Positions 2,882 through 10,124 of a stretch of 42,356 nt of DNA are shown piece by piece. A program made the position numbers and the translations under genes. The stretch comes from Aurantimicrobium sp. (GTDB lineage Bacteria > Actinomycetota > Actinomycetes > Actinomycetales > Microbacteriaceae), in contig JAIOXH010000002.1 of NCBI GenBank assembly GCA_021741765.1, forward strand, positions 1 through 42,356, in the 5' to 3' direction. Under the pieces are notes generated by a model, which worked only from the letters and a program-made list of their open reading frames with translations, was not told the origin of the DNA and made no database searches. How positions within the stretch are numbered: position 1 is the first letter of the stretch; the number at the start of each line of letters is the position of its first letter.

Positions 2882-3955
2882 CTACTCGCTGAGAGCGGCG
2901 AGACGCGACTCCTCGTCGGCCGCAATGCACGACTCGACGACGGGAGCGAGAGCACCGTCCATGACCTGATCGAGGTTGTACGACTTGTATCCCGTGCGGT
3001 GATCGGCGATGCGATTCTCCGGGAAGTTGTACGTGCGGATGCGCTCAGAGCGGTCAACCGTACGAATCTGCGTTTTGCGCGCGGCACTTGCTTCGGCCGC
3101 CGCATCCTCCTGCTGCTTGGCAAGAATGCGAGCCCGCAGCACGCGCATGCCAGCCTCCCGGTTTTGCAGCTGTGACTTTTCGTTTTGCATCGATACGACG
3201 ATGCCGGTGGGAAGGTGCGTGATGCGCACGGCGGAGTCGGTGGTGTTGACACTCTGCCCGCCGGGGCCGCTGGATCGGTAGACGTCGATCTTGAGGTCGT
3301 TCTGGCTGATCTCGACCTCTTCGGGCTCGTCGACCTCGGGAAAGACCAGAACGCCCGCGGCCGACGTGTGAATGCGCCCCTGTGACTCGGTGGCCGGCAC
3401 GCGTTGAACACGGTGCACGCCCCCCTCGTACTTGAGGTGCGCCCATACGCCCAGTGCGGGATCGGGAGAGTTGCCCTTGATGGCAATCTGAACGTCTTTG
3501 TAGCCCCCGAGATCCGACTCCGTGCGATCCAGGATTTCGGTCTTCCACCCCTTTGACTCGGCGTAGTGCAGGTACATGCGCAACAGGTCGGCGGCAAACA
3601 GGGCGCTCTCGGCCCCGCCCTCGCCGGCCTTGATCTCCATGATCACGTCGCGCCCGTCGTCGGGGTCGCGCGGAATCAGCAGACGCCGCAGGCGCTCCTG
3701 CGCAGCCGGAAGCGACTCCTCGAGGGTGGTCACCTCGGTGGCAAAGGCGTCATCTTCTTTAGCCAGTTCGCGCGCCGCAATCAGGTCGTCCTGCATCGCC
3801 AGCAGTCCCTCGTGCGCCGCCTTAATCTGGCTCAACTGCGCGTACCGCCGATTGAGTTTTTTGGCACGCGCCGCATCGGCGTGCACAGCGGGATCCGAGA
3901 GTTGCGTCTGGATCTCGGTGTGCTCGTCGAGAAGAGCGTTAACCGAATCGATCAC
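2882..3955 (-). CDS. prfA: Peptide chain release factor 1
   Basis: A 357-residue class I release factor. The tripeptide anticodon PAT (residues 187-189, in [14 protein letters not shown]) marks RF1, which reads UAG and UAA. The GGQ motif (232-234, in [14 protein letters not shown]) is the catalytic loop that triggers peptidyl-tRNA hydrolysis. Length matches the family. A longer frame starts at 3997, but GTG at 3955, one base after the rho TAA, gives the normal N-terminus and follows an AGGAAA ribosome site. It is co-transcribed with rho, as usual in actinobacteria. The usual next gene, prmC, which methylates the GGQ glutamine, is absent here and is replaced by a WecE-like aminotransferase. 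Confidence 0.95.
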
Positions 3956-3956
3956 G

Positions 3957-5639
3957 TTAGTTTCCTGAGCCCGACTTTTCGTCGAGGGACGCGTCACGCT
4001 GCACCTGCATCAGGAACTCCACGTTCGTGGGGGTGTCGCCGAGCTTGCCCAGCACGTACTCGAGTGCGGAGCGCGCTCCACGGGCGGCTAGGCCGCGACG
4101 GAGCTTCCAGCTGAGAGCAACTTCGTCGCCACCCAGGAGCAGGTCTTCGCGTCGGGTTGCCGATGCGGTCACGTCAACGGCCGGGAAGATGCGCTGATCG
4201 GCAATGGTGCGCGACAGGCGCAACTCACAGTTTGCGTTGTCGTCGAACTCATCGAAGATTGCGCTGTCAACCGCGGATCCCGTCTCGGTCACCACGGAGG
4301 CGATGACGGTGAGCGAGCCACCGTTTTCGATGTTGCGCGCAGCACCGAAGAACTTCTTGGCCGGATACAGGGCCCCTGCGTCGACACTGGAGTTTCCCGC
4401 GCGCGACGCGGAGACGGACGACACGGTGTAGGCGCGACCCAGGGCGGTGAGCGAGTCGAGCAAGAGCACGACGTCCTGACCCAGTTCGACGAGCCGCTTG
4501 GCGCGCTCCACGGCGAGTTCGGCAACCATGGTGTGGTCTTCGGCGGGACGGTCAAACGTCGAAGCAATGACCTCACCCTTGACGGTGCGCTCGGCCTCGG
4601 TGACCTCTTCGGGTCGGGCGTCAACCAGAACAACCATGACGTGAACCTCAGGGTTGTTCGTCGACACGGCTTCGGCAATCTGCAAAAGCACCGCCGACTT
4701 ACCCGACGACGGTCCACCAACAACGAGGCCGCGCTGGCCCTTGCCCACCGGGGCAATAACGTCGATGAGTCGGCCCGTCAGGCGATCCGGAGTGGTCTCC
4801 AGGCGCAGGCGCTCCTGGGGATAGAGCGGCGTCAGCGTGGCGAAGTCCTCGCGGGTAGCTGCCTCTTCCTGTGATTGGCCGTTGATGCTGTCAATGCGAA
4901 CGAGCGCATTGAACTTCTGGCGGCCGAAGTTCTCACCGTCTCGGGGCTGCTTGATCGACCCCACGATGGCGTCGCCGCGACGAAGGTTGTACTTCTTCAC
5001 CTGGCCGAGGGAGACGTACACGTCGTTGGCGCCGGGCAGGTAGCCCGCGGTGCGAACGAACGCGTAGTTTTCGAGAACGTCGAGGATGCCGCCGATGGGC
5101 AACAGAACGTCATCTTCGAGGATCTCTGGCTCGATCTCTTCGCTGAGGCCGCGACCGCGTCGGCGATCCCGCTGACGATTGCGGTTCGATCGGTCGTTGA
5201 GCCCCCCGTCACCGTCGGCATCGCCATCGCTGCTCGGGCCGTTTTGGTTGCCGTTGCCGTTGCGGCTGCGGCTGCGACTACGACTACGCGCGGGGCGCTC
5301 GGAGGTGCCGGTGGAATCGCCGTCGGATGCCGACGCACCGTCGGACTCAGCACTCGCAGCCCCCGCCTTGCTGGAAGGCGAGTTCTCGGCGCCAGCGTCA
5401 GCGGTGCCCTCGGTCTCGGCTTTCTTGCCTCGCGCCCGGCCGCGACGCGGGGCCTCGGGGGCCTCGCTCGCATCGCTTGACCGGGTAGATTCCAAGCCGG
5501 TCACGGTCGCGGATGCCGTCACGGCCTCCGCTGTGGCGAGCGGCTCGGTGGTCGTAGCACGACGCGGCGCTCGGCGACGCGGTGCCTTTTCTTCGGTGGA
5601 CGCAGAATCAGCGGCACTGTTTTCGGTTGTGTCAGACAC
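3957..5639 (-). CDS. rho: Transcription termination factor Rho with altered catalytic and RNA-contact residues
   Basis: A 560-residue Rho. Residues 1 to about 175 are a low-complexity extension ([28 protein letters not shown]) typical of actinobacterial Rho. A normal-looking OB-fold RNA-binding domain follows ([20 protein letters not shown]), then the RecA-like motor. The motor aligns without gaps to E. coli Rho with an offset of 130, but key residues differ. The P-loop is GPSSGKS instead of PPKAGKT. Ala341 replaces catalytic Glu211 (DARPEE for DERPEE). Ala399 replaces Arg269. The Q-loop has Arg413, Asn416 and SS for Lys283, Thr286 and GG. Ala456 replaces R-loop Lys326. DDNAN (466-470) replaces KGTGN. 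Walker Lys314, Asp395, Arg483 and Arg496 (E. coli 184, 265, 353, 366) remain. The GTG start at 5639 follows AAGGAG. It is certainly Rho by descent and position; whether it translocates is doubtful. Confidence 0.93.
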
Positions 5640-5790: not shown

Positions 5791-5828
5791 GCCAGCCTAA
5801 CAGGTTGGGCGCACGTTGTTAGGCTGGC
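5791..5828. promoter_or_regulatory. Palindromic overlapping divergent promoters for rho and a glycosyltransferase
   Basis: A perfect 12-bp inverted repeat, GCCAGCCTAACA (5791-5802) and TGTTAGGCTGGC (5817-5828), with a 14-bp centre. Rightward it gives CTAACA-17 bp-TAGGCT (-10 at 5820-5825), pointing at the gene starting at 5849. Leftward the mirror copy gives CTAACA (5822-5817)-17 bp-TAGGCT (5799-5794), pointing at rho. Each arm is the -35 of one promoter and the -10 of the other, so the two polymerases would compete for one site. The match to TTGACA is only 4 of 6. Confidence 0.45.
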
Positions 5829-5848
5829 ATCCAAAGGAGTGCCGTCTG

Positions 5849-6733
5849 GTGACCACAGCAAAACCGTCTCGAACATCCGCCGCCCTGCCGGCCGATGTCG
5901 GCATCGTGACCGTGAGTTACAACTCCAGCGGCCAGTTGGAGACGTTCCTCCCCGGCGCCGTAGCGTCGCTGCGCACGCCGTCGCACGTGGTAGTTACCGA
6001 CAACGATTCGGCCGACATTCAGGCAACGACGCAGTTGGCCGCGACGTGGGGGGCGCAGGTCGTTCGCCTCGATCGCAATGCCGGCTACGGAGCGGCCGCT
6101 AACGCCGGAGTCGCTGCCCTGCCTGCCGCCTGCACCGCCGTGCTGATCAGCAATCCCGATGTCACGCTGACGACCGAAACGGTCTCGCGGCTGCGCGACG
6201 CTCTTCTGGCCGACCCCGCCATTGGCATTGTTGGTCCACGCATTCTCAATGCAGACGGCAGCGCTTATCCCTCCGCGCGTGCTATCCCGTCGATTCGCAC
6301 CGGCACCGGACACGCACTTTTTTCGCGCGTGTGGCCGCGCAACCCGTGGACGCGCCGCTATCACTCCGACGCCTTTCGCGGCGACGTCAATACCGATGCG
6401 GGATGGCTGTCGGGTGCCTGTCTGATGTTGCGGCGCTCAACCTTTGAGGCGCTCGGCGGCTTTGACGAGCACTACTTCATGTACTTCGAAGACGTTGACC
6501 TCGGTTACCGGGCCGGTCGGCGAGGACTGCGCAACGTCTACGTGCCCGGCGCCGTCGTGACGCACATCGGTGGCGAAACCACCCGGGTCAATAGACGAGC
6601 GATGCTCGCGGCACACCACGACAGTGCCAAGAAGTTCATCGCCACCAAGTACGCCGGACCCGTCTGGGCCCCGGTGCGTCTCGTCCTCCGGATTGGCCTT
6701 AATCTGCGCCTGCGACTGGAGTCACGCAGTTAG
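5849..6733 (+). CDS. GT2 family glycosyltransferase, RfbF/rhamnosyltransferase-like
   Basis: A 294-residue GT2 enzyme. GIVTVSYNS (about 18-26), VVTDNDSAD, LISNPDV (the metal-binding region) and GGFDEHYFMYFEDVDLGYR (about 205-223) are the standard motifs of bacterial rhamnosyltransferase-like GT2 proteins. No signal or membrane segments are seen. GTG at 5849 is chosen because AAAGGAG lies 9 bases upstream; the frame is open slightly further. It is the only plus-strand gene in the first 11 kb and separates rho from thrB, breaking a normally continuous operon. It is transcribed away from rho from the palindrome at 5791-5828 and runs towards thrB, 56 bases away. Sugar donor and acceptor are unknown. 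Confidence 0.85.
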   Translation: MTTAKPSRTSAALPADVGIVTVSYNSSGQLETFLPGAVASLRTPSHVVVTDNDSADIQATTQLAATWGAQVVRLDRNAGYGAAANAGVAALPAACTAVLISNPDVTLTTETVSRLRDALLADPAIGIVGPRILNADGSAYPSARAIPSIRTGTGHALFSRVWPRNPWTRRYHSDAFRGDVNTDAGWLSGACLMLRRSTFEALGGFDEHYFMYFEDVDLGYRAGRRGLRNVYVPGAVVTHIGGETTRVNRRAMLAAHHDSAKKFIATKYAGPVWAPVRLVLRIGLNLRLRLESRS

Positions 6734-6789: not shown

Positions 6790-7710
6790 CTAGGCTGCGT
6801 CGGTGACGGTCGCTCCGCGAAAGTCGACGGCCAGCAGGTGCGGATGCCACGGCGTCTCCTGTTCCGTCGCCACGAGTTCGGCGGCACGCAGGCGGGCGCT
6901 GGGGTCACTGCACAACACCAGGATGCTGGGGCCGGCGCCGGATACGACGGCAGCAAAGCCCGCCGCGCGCAGTTCACGAATCAGCATGCTCGTTTCGGGC
7001 ATGGCTTCGGCGCGATAGTTCTGGTGCAGCTTGTCTTCCGTGGCTTCGAGGAGAAGCTCGGGGCTCTGCGTGAGCGCCGCAATAAGAAGCGCCGAGCGCG
7101 ACACGTTGAAAATAGCGTCTTCGTGAGGAACGTTGGCGGGCTGGAGCGAGCGAGCGAGTTCCGTCGACATGGTGAACTCGGGCACCAGCACGAGCGGCGA
7201 GACCCCCCGGTGCACCATGAGCTTCTTGGAGCGAGGCCCCGCAGGTGTGGTCCACGCGATGGTGAGTCCGCCAAAAAGGGCCGGGGCTACGTTGTCGGGG
7301 TGCCCCTCGAGGTCGGTGGCAAACTGCAACAGCTGGTCGGGGGTCACGTCCACAACTCCATCGAGAAGACCCTTGGCCGCCATGATTCCGCCGACGATGG
7401 CCGCGCCCGACGAGCCCATGCCGCGCCCGTGCGGAATGTTGTTGTGTGCGACGAGGTCGACGCCGGGCATTTTCTGGCCCAACTTGTCAAACGTGTAGGC
7501 CATCGACGTCACGATGAGGTTCGTCTCGTCGGTGGGAACCGTGCCCTGACCCACGCCGATGACCTCAACCGTGGCGCCCGGTTTGTTCCGAACACTCACC
7601 TCGAGTTCGTCGTAAAAGCCCAGCGCGAGGCCGAGCGTGTCAAAGCCCGGTCCGAGGTTGGCCGTGGTGGCGGGAACCCGAACCGTGACGCGGCGGCCCG
7701 CGAGGCTCAC
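6790..7710 (-). CDS. thrB: Homoserine kinase
   Basis: A 306-residue GHMP kinase that phosphorylates L-homoserine with ATP, the step before threonine synthase. The N-terminal VPATTANLGPGFDTLGLAL (about 11-29) and the ATP-binding loop GRGMGSSGAAIVGG are diagnostic, and the C-terminal AVVSGAGPSILVL is the third GHMP motif. The GTG start overlaps the TAG of thrC (TAGTG), so the two are translationally coupled. It is the last gene of the lysA-hom-thrC-thrB unit. In related genomes rho follows on the same strand; here a plus-strand glycosyltransferase intervenes. Confidence 0.95.
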   Translation of the reverse strand: MSLAGRRVTVRVPATTANLGPGFDTLGLALGFYDELEVSVRNKPGATVEVIGVGQGTVPTDETNLIVTSMAYTFDKLGQKMPGVDLVAHNNIPHGRGMGSSGAAIVGGIMAAKGLLDGVVDVTPDQLLQFATDLEGHPDNVAPALFGGLTIAWTTPAGPRSKKLMVHRGVSPLVLVPEFTMSTELARSLQPANVPHEDAIFNVSRSALLIAALTQSPELLLEATEDKLHQNYRAEAMPETSMLIRELRAAGFAAVVSGAGPSILVLCSDPSARLRAAELVATEQETPWHPHLLAVDFRGATVTDAA

Positions 7711-8795
7711 TACTTCAGACCGCCGGCGACCAGACCCAGCACATCGGCAATCGTCGGCACGTCAACGGGAACCGAGGTGGGCGTCACTTCGGATCCGTCG
7801 GCGCGACGCAGGGCCCACTGCGGGTCTTTCAGACCGTGTCCGGTGACCGTGAGCACGACGATGGCGCCCTTGGGAATCTCGCCGGCATCGGAGCGCTCGA
7901 GCAGTCCGGCCACCGAGATGGCGGATGCGGGCTCAACGAAGATGCCCACCTCGGCCGACAATATGCGCTGGGCAGCAAGAATGGTGTCGTCGTCAATGGC
8001 GCCAAAGTAACCGTCGGTCTGTTCGCGAGCCGCCAGAGCCAGCTCCCACGATGCGGGGTTACCAATGCGGATGGCGCTGGCCAGGGTCTCCGGGCTCTTC
8101 ACCACGTGACCAAGAACTATGGGCGCGCTGCCCGCAGCTTGAAAACCAAACATGCGCGGCATCTTTGTGGTGGCCCCGCGCGCCAGCTCCTCGGTGTAGC
8201 CGCGCGAGTAGGCGGTGTAGTTTCCGGCGTTACCCACGGGCATGATGTGAATGTCGGGAGCGTCTTCGAGCACCTCGACAACCTCGAAGGCTGCTGTTTT
8301 CTGCCCTTCGATGCGGTCATTGTTCACCGAGTTCACGAGGTGCACAGGGTAGTTGGCAGCCAGGTCGCGGGCAATGTCGAGGCAGTCATCGAAGTTGCCC
8401 TGCACCTGCAGCAGTTGGCCGTTGTGAGCGACGGCCTGCGACAGCTTGCCCATCGAGATCTTGCCCTCCGGCACTAGGACGGCAGCGGTGATGCCAGCGT
8501 GAGCGGCGTAGGCCGCCGCGGAAGCACTGGTGTTTCCGGTTGAGGCACAGATGACCGCCTTGGCACCGTGCTCGACGGCCTTAGAGATGGCCATCGTCAT
8601 GCCGCGGTCTTTGAACGAGCCCGTAGGGTTCATGCCCTCGTACTTGATGAACACCTTGGCGCCCGTGCGTGCCGATAGAGCTGGTGCGGGGATGAGCGGG
8701 GTGCCACCCTCGCCGAGAGTGATGATCGGCGTCTTGGCGCTCACATCGAGACGATCCGCATACTCGTGCAAGACTCCGCGCCACTGCTTGGCCAT
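7710..8795 (-). CDS. thrC: Threonine synthase
   Basis: A 361-residue fold-type II PLP enzyme converting O-phosphohomoserine to threonine. LGEGGTPL near the N-terminus, the PLP lysine in TGSFKDRGM (about residue 63) and the ASTGNTSASAAAYA loop are family signatures. The length matches the short (about 350-residue) actinobacterial and Bacillus-type class. ATG at 8795 directly follows the hom stop (TAAATG), and the gene ends on thrB's start. Cytoplasmic. Confidence 0.95.
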   Translation of the reverse strand: MAKQWRGVLHEYADRLDVSAKTPIITLGEGGTPLIPAPALSARTGAKVFIKYEGMNPTGSFKDRGMTMAISKAVEHGAKAVICASTGNTSASAAAYAAHAGITAAVLVPEGKISMGKLSQAVAHNGQLLQVQGNFDDCLDIARDLAANYPVHLVNSVNNDRIEGQKTAAFEVVEVLEDAPDIHIMPVGNAGNYTAYSRGYTEELARGATTKMPRMFGFQAAGSAPIVLGHVVKSPETLASAIRIGNPASWELALAAREQTDGYFGAIDDDTILAAQRILSAEVGIFVEPASAISVAGLLERSDAGEIPKGAIVVLTVTGHGLKDPQWALRRADGSEVTPTSVPVDVPTIADVLGLVAGGLK

Positions 8796-10124
8796 TTAGG
8801 CTCCCTCAATTCTCAATACGGACGTTACCGACGTCACTGCCTTTAGCTTTGCCAGGTCGGCAACCGTGGCGGCAAGATCGGATTCTTTGGCTCGGTGCGT
8901 TCCAATAACCAGCGTAGCCGTCTGGCCCTTCGACGCTGCACTGCCCTCGGAGCTAAAGATGCCCTGTTCGACGAGCTCGACCGAAACGCTGTGGTCTGCA
9001 AAAACTTTCGCAACCGAGGCAAGCACACCCGGCTCGTCAGCGACTTCGAGCGTGACGTGGTAACTGGTGGTGATGGCCGAGATGGGAAGCATGGCGTGGT
9101 TGGCGTGCGTCGACTCTGCGAGGCCGGGCCCACCAATGACATGGCGTCTGGCCGCCGACACGAGGTCGCCCAGCACGGCGGAGGCCGTTTCCGGGCCACC
9201 GGCACCAGCACCGTAGAACATGAGTGAACCCGCACCCTCCGCCTCAACAAAGACGGCGTTATTGGCGCCCCGAACCGCAGCGAGCGGGTGGGTTCGCGGA
9301 ATCAGGGCGGGATACACGCGCACCGAAACGCCGTCGATACCGTCGGCAGCGTTATCCAGTCGCTCGGCAATGGCGAGCAGTTTGACGGCGTAGCCGGCCT
9401 TGCTGGCCAACGCGATGACCTCGCCGCTGACCCCCCGGATGCCTTCCCGGTAGACCGACGACAGGTCAATGGTCGTGTGAAACGCGAGACCTGCCAAGAT
9501 GGCGGCCTTCTGTGCGGCATCGAATCCGTCGACATCCGCCGTGGGGTCGGCCTCGGCGTAACCGAGCTCGGTGGCCACAGCGAGGGCCTCGTCAAAGGTC
9601 GACCCCTCCGTATCCATGCGATCCAGAATGAAGTTCGTGGTGCCGTTGACGATTCCCATGATGCGCGTCACATTGTCGCCGGCGAGACTGTCGCGCAGCG
9701 GGCGAATGATCGGAATGGCTCCGGCCACCGCAGCCTCGTAGTACAGCTGAGCGCCCACCCGTTCGGCGAGCGCGAAAAGTTCCGTGCCGTGATTCGCCAG
9801 AAGCGCCTTGTTGGCCGTCACCACGTCGGCGCCGGACTGCAGTGCCGCAGTGATGTAGGTGCGAGCGGGCTCGATACCACCCATGACCTCGATCACGATG
9901 TCGGCGCCCAGAATGAGCGATTCGGCATCCGTAGTCAGCAGGTGTGCGGGGATGGCGGGTGAGCGGGTGGCCTTCAGATCGCGCACGGCGACACCAATAA
10001 GGTCGATGTGCGCACCCACGCGTGCGGCCAATTCGTCGGCGTGATCGATGAGTCGGCGGGCAACGTTTGCTCCCACGGTGCCGCCGCCCAGCAGGGCTAC
10101 GCGAAGACTGCGGTACTCGATCAT
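8796..10124 (-). CDS. hom: Homoserine dehydrogenase
   Basis: A 442-residue NAD(P)-dependent enzyme reducing aspartate semialdehyde to homoserine, the branch point to threonine and methionine. The Rossmann motif is ALLGGGTVGANVARRL (about 10-25). The catalytic region holds ADPTADVDGFDAAQKAAIL with the conserved Asp and Lys. A C-terminal ACT domain (YHVTLEVADEPGVLASVAK, about 355-373) is the usual threonine feedback module. The ATG overlaps the lysA stop (ATGA), which supports an operon. Confidence 0.95.
   Translation of the reverse strand: MIEYRSLRVALLGGGTVGANVARRLIDHADELAARVGAHIDLIGVAVRDLKATRSPAIPAHLLTTDAESLILGADIVIEVMGGIEPARTYITAALQSGADVVTANKALLANHGTELFALAERVGAQLYYEAAVAGAIPIIRPLRDSLAGDNVTRIMGIVNGTTNFILDRMDTEGSTFDEALAVATELGYAEADPTADVDGFDAAQKAAILAGLAFHTTIDLSSVYREGIRGVSGEVIALASKAGYAVKLLAIAERLDNAADGIDGVSVRVYPALIPRTHPLAAVRGANNAVFVEAEGAGSLMFYGAGAGGPETASAVLGDLVSAARRHVIGGPGLAESTHANHAMLPISAITTSYHVTLEVADEPGVLASVAKVFADHSVSVELVEQGIFSSEGSAASKGQTATLVIGTHRAKESDLAATVADLAKLKAVTSVTSVLRIEGA

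What the first reader, a model, noticed from the sequence alone, without database searches (positions are those of the whole stretch)
3957..5639. Rho factor lacking catalytic and RNA-translocation residues
The protein sits at the orthologous rho locus (upstream of prfA) and keeps the N-terminal RNA-binding domain, yet gap-free alignment to E. coli Rho shows changes at residues that are nearly invariant. Catalytic Glu211 is Ala341, Arg269 is Ala399, R-loop Lys326 is Ala456, and P-loop Lys181 is Ser. Q-loop Thr286 is Asn and its following GG is SS. The Lys336-Gly337 region is DDNAN. Walker Lys, Walker Asp and arginine-finger residues remain. The frame is intact and conserved elsewhere, so it is not a decaying pseudogene. 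It may be a Rho that binds RNA and forms rings but does not hydrolyse ATP or translocate normally. It could also be insensitive to bicyclomycin, whose site includes several of these positions. I recall other Microbacteriaceae Rho proteins with the standard residues. A Rho repurposed as an RNA-binding protein would be new.
Basis: partly seen in the sequence, partly recalled or inferred. Interest (0 to 1): 0.85.

Follow-up and report, generated by a model that had tools for sequence, protein, structure and literature searches.

The report
Rho factor that lost its motor
This freshwater actinobacterium's only detected copy of Rho, the ring-shaped motor that ends transcription, has lost the residues it needs to burn ATP and pull RNA but keeps its RNA-binding domain under strong selection, and the same loss has happened independently more than a dozen times in related bacteria.

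Summary
The minus-strand ORF 3957-5639 (560 aa) is the orthologous rho gene (hom-thrC-thrB-rho-prfA) and the only Rho found in this 78%-complete MAG. The catalytic Glu is Ala341. P-loop Lys181, Arg269, R-loop Lys326, Lys336-Gly337 and the Q-loop are all replaced. Walker Lys314, Asp395 and Arg-finger Arg496 remain, and the primary RNA-binding site is essentially intact. The same Glu-to-Ala change made experimentally in E. coli and M. tuberculosis Rho abolishes ATP hydrolysis but not ATP binding or oligomerisation; the M. tuberculosis mutant still binds RNA and cannot terminate. It is not an isolated error or decay: three congeners share the key losses and the protein is under purifying selection. 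Surveys show single-copy Rho with catalytic lesions in at least 19 of 148 Microbacteriaceae genomes (11 genera, including Pontimonas salivibrio), at least 24 of 142 genomes of a second family, and one acidimicrobial MAG. In dead lineages the evolutionary rates invert: the RNA-binding domain becomes the slow part and the motor the fast part. Best reading: Rho recurrently converted into a motor-free RNA-binding protein. What that protein does is inferred, not shown.

The parts
3957..5639 (-). rho gene, 560 aa, GTG start at 5639, stop at 3957-3959; motor-dead Rho
   Evidence: Pfam Rho_RNA_bind and ATP-synt_ab; 481 bits to NCBIfam Rho equivalog TIGR00767, below its 509.45 cut-off; best solved structure M. 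tuberculosis Rho 7oqh by sequence and fold
5142..5639 (-). N-terminal low-complexity basic/acidic region (aa 1-166), poorly conserved
   Evidence: Translation; 57-98% identity in the genus, dN/dS up to 0.32
4887..5099 (-). OB / primary RNA-binding domain (about Ec 50-118), including Y192 (F62), F194 (F64), R196 (R66), D206 (D78), Y208 (Y80)
   Evidence: 35 of 36 family-invariant positions kept; dN/dS 0-0.017 in the genus
4695..4709 (-). P-loop PSSGKS: K181>S311, Walker Lys K184>K314 kept, T185>S315
4614..4622 (-). Catalytic site D340-A341-R342: catalytic Glu211 replaced by Ala341, Arg valve R212 kept
   Evidence: E>A at this site abolishes ATPase in E. coli and M. tuberculosis Rho (PMC4499133)
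4443..4457 (-). Walker B Asp D395 (D265) kept, Arg269 replaced by Ala399
4380..4415 (-). Q-loop: P279>V409, T286>N416, G287-G288>S417-S418
   Evidence: P279S/L in E. coli Rho abolishes termination (PMC1950744)
4230..4274 (-). R-loop K326>A456 and K336-G337-T338-G339-N340 > DDNAN (466-470)
4152..4154 (-). Arginine finger R496 (Ec R366), kept
2882..3997 (-). prfA (release factor 1), next gene downstream; marks the orthologous rho locus and supplied the tree
6790..10124 (-). thrB, thrC and hom upstream of rho, the conserved actinobacterial order

Best explanation
This is the genome's orthologous (not paralogous) Rho, converted into a pseudo-ATPase. It keeps the fold, the Walker Lys and Asp, the Arg finger and the OB-domain primary RNA-binding site, but lacks the catalytic Glu and the channel residues that grip RNA. 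It most likely binds ATP and C-rich single-stranded RNA and assembles as an oligomer, but neither hydrolyses ATP nor threads or translocates RNA. The cell therefore lacks motor-driven Rho termination. The protein is kept for an RNA-binding role through its OB domain, either a motor-free RNA-binding particle on nascent or free mRNA, or a translocation-independent effect on RNA polymerase. Shown here: the residue losses, single copy, synteny, conservation in the genus, recurrence in other lineages, rate inversion. From published mutants: E>A means no ATPase. Inferred: ring assembly, RNA binding, absence of termination, present role.
For: Residues. Single copy and synteny. Fold prediction: pLDDT 83, pTM 0.84, best match MtbRho at TM 0.86 by query length. 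Published: EcRho E211A and MtbRho E386A completely lose ATP hydrolysis without loss of ATP binding or oligomerisation, and MtbRho E386A keeps RNA binding (Kd 5.3 vs 3.5 nM) but fails in unwinding and termination (PMC4499133). Q-loop P279 mutants cannot terminate (PMC1950744). Selection: dN/dS over the core 0.06-0.11 in the genus; OB 0-0.017 against motor core 0.06-0.12. Rate inversion, amino-acid divergence OB/motor: 2.2-2.8 in canonical Microbacteriaceae, 0.20 in this genus, 0-0.72 in all other dead lineages; OB/RF1 0.42 here against 1.04 in canonical kin. Recurrence. In the second family a nine-species clade has lost both Walker Lys (A/V/T) and catalytic Glu (A/T) yet its OB domain is 99-100% identical between species.
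Against: No biochemistry or expression data exist for this protein. The g1 genomes are 78-89% complete, so a second rho could in principle lie in the missing part; the closed or near-closed dead-lineage genomes with a single Rho argue against that as the general answer. Retained Walker Lys, Asp, Arg valve and Arg finger leave open weak or rearranged hydrolysis. The motor domain is still conserved (dN/dS about 0.1), so it has some role beyond scaffolding. Coding-strand purine content, which drops in Bacilli that lost Rho (PMC13323073), is no different in dead and canonical lineages, but canonical relatives show no such bias either, so that test was uninformative.
Confidence: 0.68

Rival explanations
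1. Relaxed selection: Rho became dispensable in these lineages and the gene is slowly decaying, motor first; the intact frame is only a matter of time.
For: Motor-domain rates rise in all dead lineages. Three genomes (g18, g67) end near Ec residue 345, losing the Arg finger region. Loss is recurrent. Rho is known to be dispensable in some bacteria and has been lost in Bacilli (PMC13323073).
Against: Frames are intact across whole genera. The OB domain is as constrained as, or more constrained than, in canonical kin (OB/RF1 divergence 0-0.10 in three dead groups of the second family against 0.58; 0.42 against 1.04 for g1). Motor core dN/dS is still about 0.1 in g1. The same gene remains at the same locus. 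Some groups (g14, g6, g16) do look more relaxed in the OB domain too (OB/RF1 1.3-2.3), so decay may be true of them.
Confidence: 0.17
2. Still a working, slow motor: another residue replaces the catalytic Glu and a different set of channel residues grips RNA.
For: K184, D265, R212, R366 and R353 are all kept in g1. R-loop Lys is a Thr in the active M. tuberculosis Rho (PMC4499133, PMC8828861), so that position alone is not decisive.
Against: E>A alone abolishes hydrolysis in two different Rho proteins including an actinobacterial one (PMC4499133). Here it is combined with loss of K181, R269, the Q-loop and K336-G337, with no new acidic residue at positions 340-342. Other dead lineages have lost the Walker Lys itself.
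Confidence: 0.08
3. Translocation-independent terminator: the ring binds RNA polymerase and nascent RNA and inactivates the elongation complex without ATP hydrolysis. (This is one specific form of the motor-free role left open in the best explanation.)
For: E. coli Rho binds RNAP in an open ring before engaging RNA and is proposed to act allosterically at first (summarised in PMC9908020). The OB domain is under strong constraint. R221, G225-V227 and the helix at about Ec 242-262 are kept in nearly all dead lineages.
Against: The same structural studies postulate that final termination involves ring closure (PMC9908020). MtbRho E386A does not release transcripts efficiently (PMC4499133). No RNAP or NusG contact was tested here.
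Confidence: 0.15

Closest known systems
Transcription termination factor Rho of Mycobacterium tuberculosis (PDB 7OQH)
   Same: Fold, OB primary RNA site, low-complexity N-terminal extension, actinobacterial origin; 495.6 bits by sequence, TM 0.86 by query length
   Different: MtbRho keeps catalytic Glu386, Walker residues and Q-loop and is an active if weak motor; its R-loop Lys is a Thr (PMC4499133, PMC8828861)
Laboratory mutants EcRho E211A and MtbRho E386A
   Same: Exactly the substitution found here; ATP binding and oligomerisation kept (and RNA binding for E386A), hydrolysis lost (PMC4499133)
   Different: Single engineered changes in otherwise active proteins; here natural, fixed in a genus, with further loss of Q-loop, R-loop, K181, R269 and K336-G337
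   Same: Same family and locus, about 67% identical over the core
   Different: All catalytic, P-loop and channel residues intact
Rho paralogue family NF041509 (short form)
   Same: Matches the model at 453.8 bits
   Different: Far below its cut-off of 628; the present gene is the single orthologous copy, not a paralogue

Membership tests
Transcription termination factor Rho (orthologue) | Rho RNA-binding (OB) domain plus RecA-type hexameric ATPase domain | tested here: met
   Pfam PF07497 83.5 bits and PF00006 82.7 bits, both above cut-off; fold search
Transcription termination factor Rho (orthologue) | Conserved locus next to prfA downstream of hom-thrC-thrB | tested here: met
Transcription termination factor Rho (orthologue) | Score above NCBIfam equivalog TIGR00767 cut-off | tested here: not met
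   481 bits against 509.45; a second Rho equivalog model, PRK09376, is passed (444.9 against 315)
Active Rho motor | Catalytic Glu (Ec E211) | tested here: not met
   Ala341
Active Rho motor | Walker A Lys (K184), Walker B Asp (D265), Arg finger (R366) | tested here: met
   K314, D395, R496; lost in several other dead lineages
Active Rho motor | Secondary RNA site: Q-loop and R-loop Lys | tested here: not met
   P279V, T286N, GG>SS, K326A
Active Rho motor | RNA-stimulated ATPase, helicase, termination | not testable with these tools
   Needs purified protein
Primary-site RNA-binding protein of Rho type | Aromatic/Arg/Asp/Tyr pocket (Ec F62, F64, R66, D78, Y80) | tested here: met
   Y192, F194, R196, D206, Y208, the canonical Microbacteriaceae set

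The most novel reading that the evidence does not exclude
Rho has been converted at least a dozen times within Actinomycetota from an ATP-driven terminator into a motor-free RNA-binding factor with a new or previously hidden job, and these species live without motor-driven Rho termination; the conserved OB domain performs a function for which translocation is not needed.
Probability: 0.5. Interest if true: 0.92.

Novelty: new variant of a known kind. Interest (0 to 1): 0.84.

Why it matters
Rho is taught as an ATP-dependent motor whose catalytic residues are highly conserved across bacteria (so stated in PMC8828861). A set of natural, single-copy, motor-dead Rho proteins under purifying selection, next to motor-competent sister species (in the second family within the same genus), gives a natural experiment. 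It shows which part of Rho's job does not need the motor, tests whether termination can be translocation-independent, and shows how cells do without active Rho. Several carriers are cultured (Pontimonas salivibrio by exact genome length; closed genomes of the second family), and a canonical relative, Rhodoluna lacicola, is genetically tractable (PMC11577799), so the question can be tested directly.

Tried and rejected
Assembly or sequencing error: rejected, independent MAGs share the losses. Pseudogene: rejected for g1 (dN/dS 0.06-0.11). Divergent paralogue beside a canonical Rho: rejected as far as the incomplete genome allows; dead-lineage genomes in closed chromosomes also show one Rho. Loss of rho in G003/G004: rejected, prfA is missing or cut there too. 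Only streamlined small genomes affected: rejected, dead Rho also occurs in 3-5 Mb genomes. Coding-strand purine bias as a read-out of Rho loss: no difference, but no bias in canonical relatives either, so uninformative. DNA-level constraint as the reason for OB conservation: rejected, synonymous divergence in the OB domain is like that of the motor domain. Papers: none found in the held library describing motor-dead natural Rho; that library lacks most subscription journals.

Full report
What is in the sequence. The finding lies on the minus strand. The ORF 3957..5639 starts with GTG at 5639 and encodes 560 aa. It matches Pfam Rho_RNA_bind and ATP-synt_ab and is closest among solved structures to M. 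tuberculosis Rho, by sequence and by predicted fold (mean pLDDT 83, pTM 0.84; TM 0.86 by query length to 7OQH). It scores 481 bits against the curated 509.45 for the NCBIfam Rho equivalog, so it falls below that automatic naming threshold, although it passes a second Rho model. The gene order hom-thrC-thrB-[glycosyltransferase]-rho-prfA identifies it as the orthologous rho locus. It is the only Rho in the assembly, which is 1.29 Mb and 78% complete.

Residues. Lost: catalytic E211 (A341), K181 (S311), R269 (A399), R-loop K326 (A456), K336-G337 (D466-D467) and Q-loop P279, T286 and G287-G288. Kept: Walker Lys K184, Walker B D265, Arg valve R212, R353, Arg finger R366, and the primary-site residues Y192, F194, R196, D206 and Y208, which are the normal set for the family.

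What the losses mean. In both E. coli (E211A) and M. tuberculosis (E386A) Rho, the identical Glu-to-Ala change completely abolishes ATP hydrolysis without loss of ATP binding or oligomerisation. The M. tuberculosis mutant keeps nM RNA binding but cannot unwind or terminate efficiently (PMC4499133). Q-loop P279 mutants of E. coli cannot release RNA (PMC1950744). K326 alone is not decisive: M. tuberculosis has Thr there and is active (PMC8828861, PMC4499133). The combination makes an active motor very unlikely.

Not an artefact. Three further MAGs of the genus (98, 88 and 81% core identity) carry E211A, K326A, the altered Q-loop and the 336-337 change. R269 and K181 are still present in the most distant of them, so the catalytic Glu went first. 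dN/dS over the core is 0.06-0.11. Two congeners without a Rho hit also lack an intact prfA, so their absence is an assembly gap.

How common it is. Of 150 Microbacteriaceae genomes searched, 148 have a Rho match. All those below 76% identity to a canonical query were fetched and read, except contig-end fragments; those at 79% or more were only partly fetched and otherwise taken as canonical, so counts are minima. Lesions in K184, E211, R212, D265 or R366 occur in 19 genomes of 11 genera. Examples are G034 (contig of 1,760,810 bp, the published length of the Pontimonas salivibrio genome, PMC6106888): R212N, K326A, R366S; G019 (927,303 bp, which I recall as the size of Tropheryma whipplei Twist): K184R, E211I; G010: K184V, E211A; and G071/G134, which stop near Ec residue 345 and so lack the Arg finger. 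Two more cases (g51, and one member of g16) have degraded Q- or R-loops but intact catalytic residues. A class-wide survey led to a second family, f29 (unnamed in the data; I think Nocardioidaceae from genome sizes, unverified). There, 142 of 150 genomes have Rho, and among the 46 read residue by residue 24 have catalytic lesions. These include a nine-species clade in which both the Walker Lys (A, V or T) and the catalytic Glu (A or T) are gone. An acidimicrobial MAG has K184A at the same locus, and no second Rho was found in its genome. On a release-factor-1 tree of 104 rows the label needs 13 changes, 9 of them forced by well-supported branches; a denser tree of f29 needs 8, 7 forced. These are single-gene trees, so I say 'more than a dozen' and not an exact number.

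Selection after loss. In canonical Microbacteriaceae the OB domain diverges 2.2-2.8 times as much as the motor core. In every dead lineage with at least two members the ratio is between 0 and 0.72 (g1: 0.20). Scaled by release factor 1, the motor core runs roughly 2-11 times faster than in canonical kin. The OB domain is slower in g1 (0.42 against 1.04), in g30 and g67 (0.39 and 0.56 against 0.85), and in three groups of f29 (0-0.10 against 0.58). It is near normal in g20/g73 and faster in g14, g6 and g16, where decay may be real. Synonymous divergence is similar in both domains, so the OB constraint is on the protein. Of 216 family-invariant positions, dead proteins depart at 0-3 of 36 in the OB domain (9 and 7 in G019 and G010) but commonly at 20-100 of 164 in the motor domain. 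Besides the OB domain, R221, G225-V227 and the helix at about Ec 242-262 remain.

Mechanism. Most likely this Rho binds RNA through the OB domain and can bind ATP and assemble, but cannot hydrolyse or translocate; it persists for an RNA-binding role. Whether that role is on free mRNA, on nascent RNA as a roadblock or protector, or on RNA polymerase is open; I put about 0.15 on the last. Decay (0.17) and a cryptic motor (0.08) are the main rivals. In lineages that also lost the Walker Lys, ATP binding itself is probably gone, which argues that the shared function does not need nucleotide.

Relation to known systems. By homology and locus it is Rho; by the defining features of the Rho motor it is not an active one. 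PMC8828861 states that the catalytic residues are highly conserved in divergent Rho factors. I recall from D'Heygere et al. 2013 (not in the held library) that most Rho sequences have canonical motifs. I found no paper in the held library describing natural motor-dead Rho. Hence 'new variant of a known kind'; it would become categorically new if a motor-free function is demonstrated.

Noticed in passing
window 5816-6733 (+): A glycosyltransferase gene sits divergently between thrB and rho in all four members of this genus and in some canonical relatives (g59, g83) but not in others (g38, g46).
   Followed up: partly
window 3957-3997: The rho 3' end overlaps the longest possible prfA ORF by 41 bases; the true prfA start is probably downstream of that GTG.
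   Followed up: no
L092, L126, L127 (Rho ORFs): Three Rho proteins from two unrelated genera (g18, g67) end at the same place, near Ec residue 345, before the Arg-finger segment.
   Followed up: partly
L142, L166-L173: Nine species of one genus in the second family lack both Walker Lys and catalytic Glu, with different replacements, and carry Cys at the primary-site position F62/Y62; the OB domain is otherwise 99-100% identical.
   Followed up: yes
L015/L132 (MAG YM.44 / G065): A Rho with all catalytic residues intact but an unusual Q-loop (GAARSTGNGVD), possibly an early stage of motor loss.
   Followed up: no
window 11592-41876: Large surface-polysaccharide gene cluster (sugar epimerases/dehydratases, aminotransferases, glycosyltransferases, O-acyltransferase-like protein, ABC transporter), judged from the ORF translations only.
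   Followed up: no
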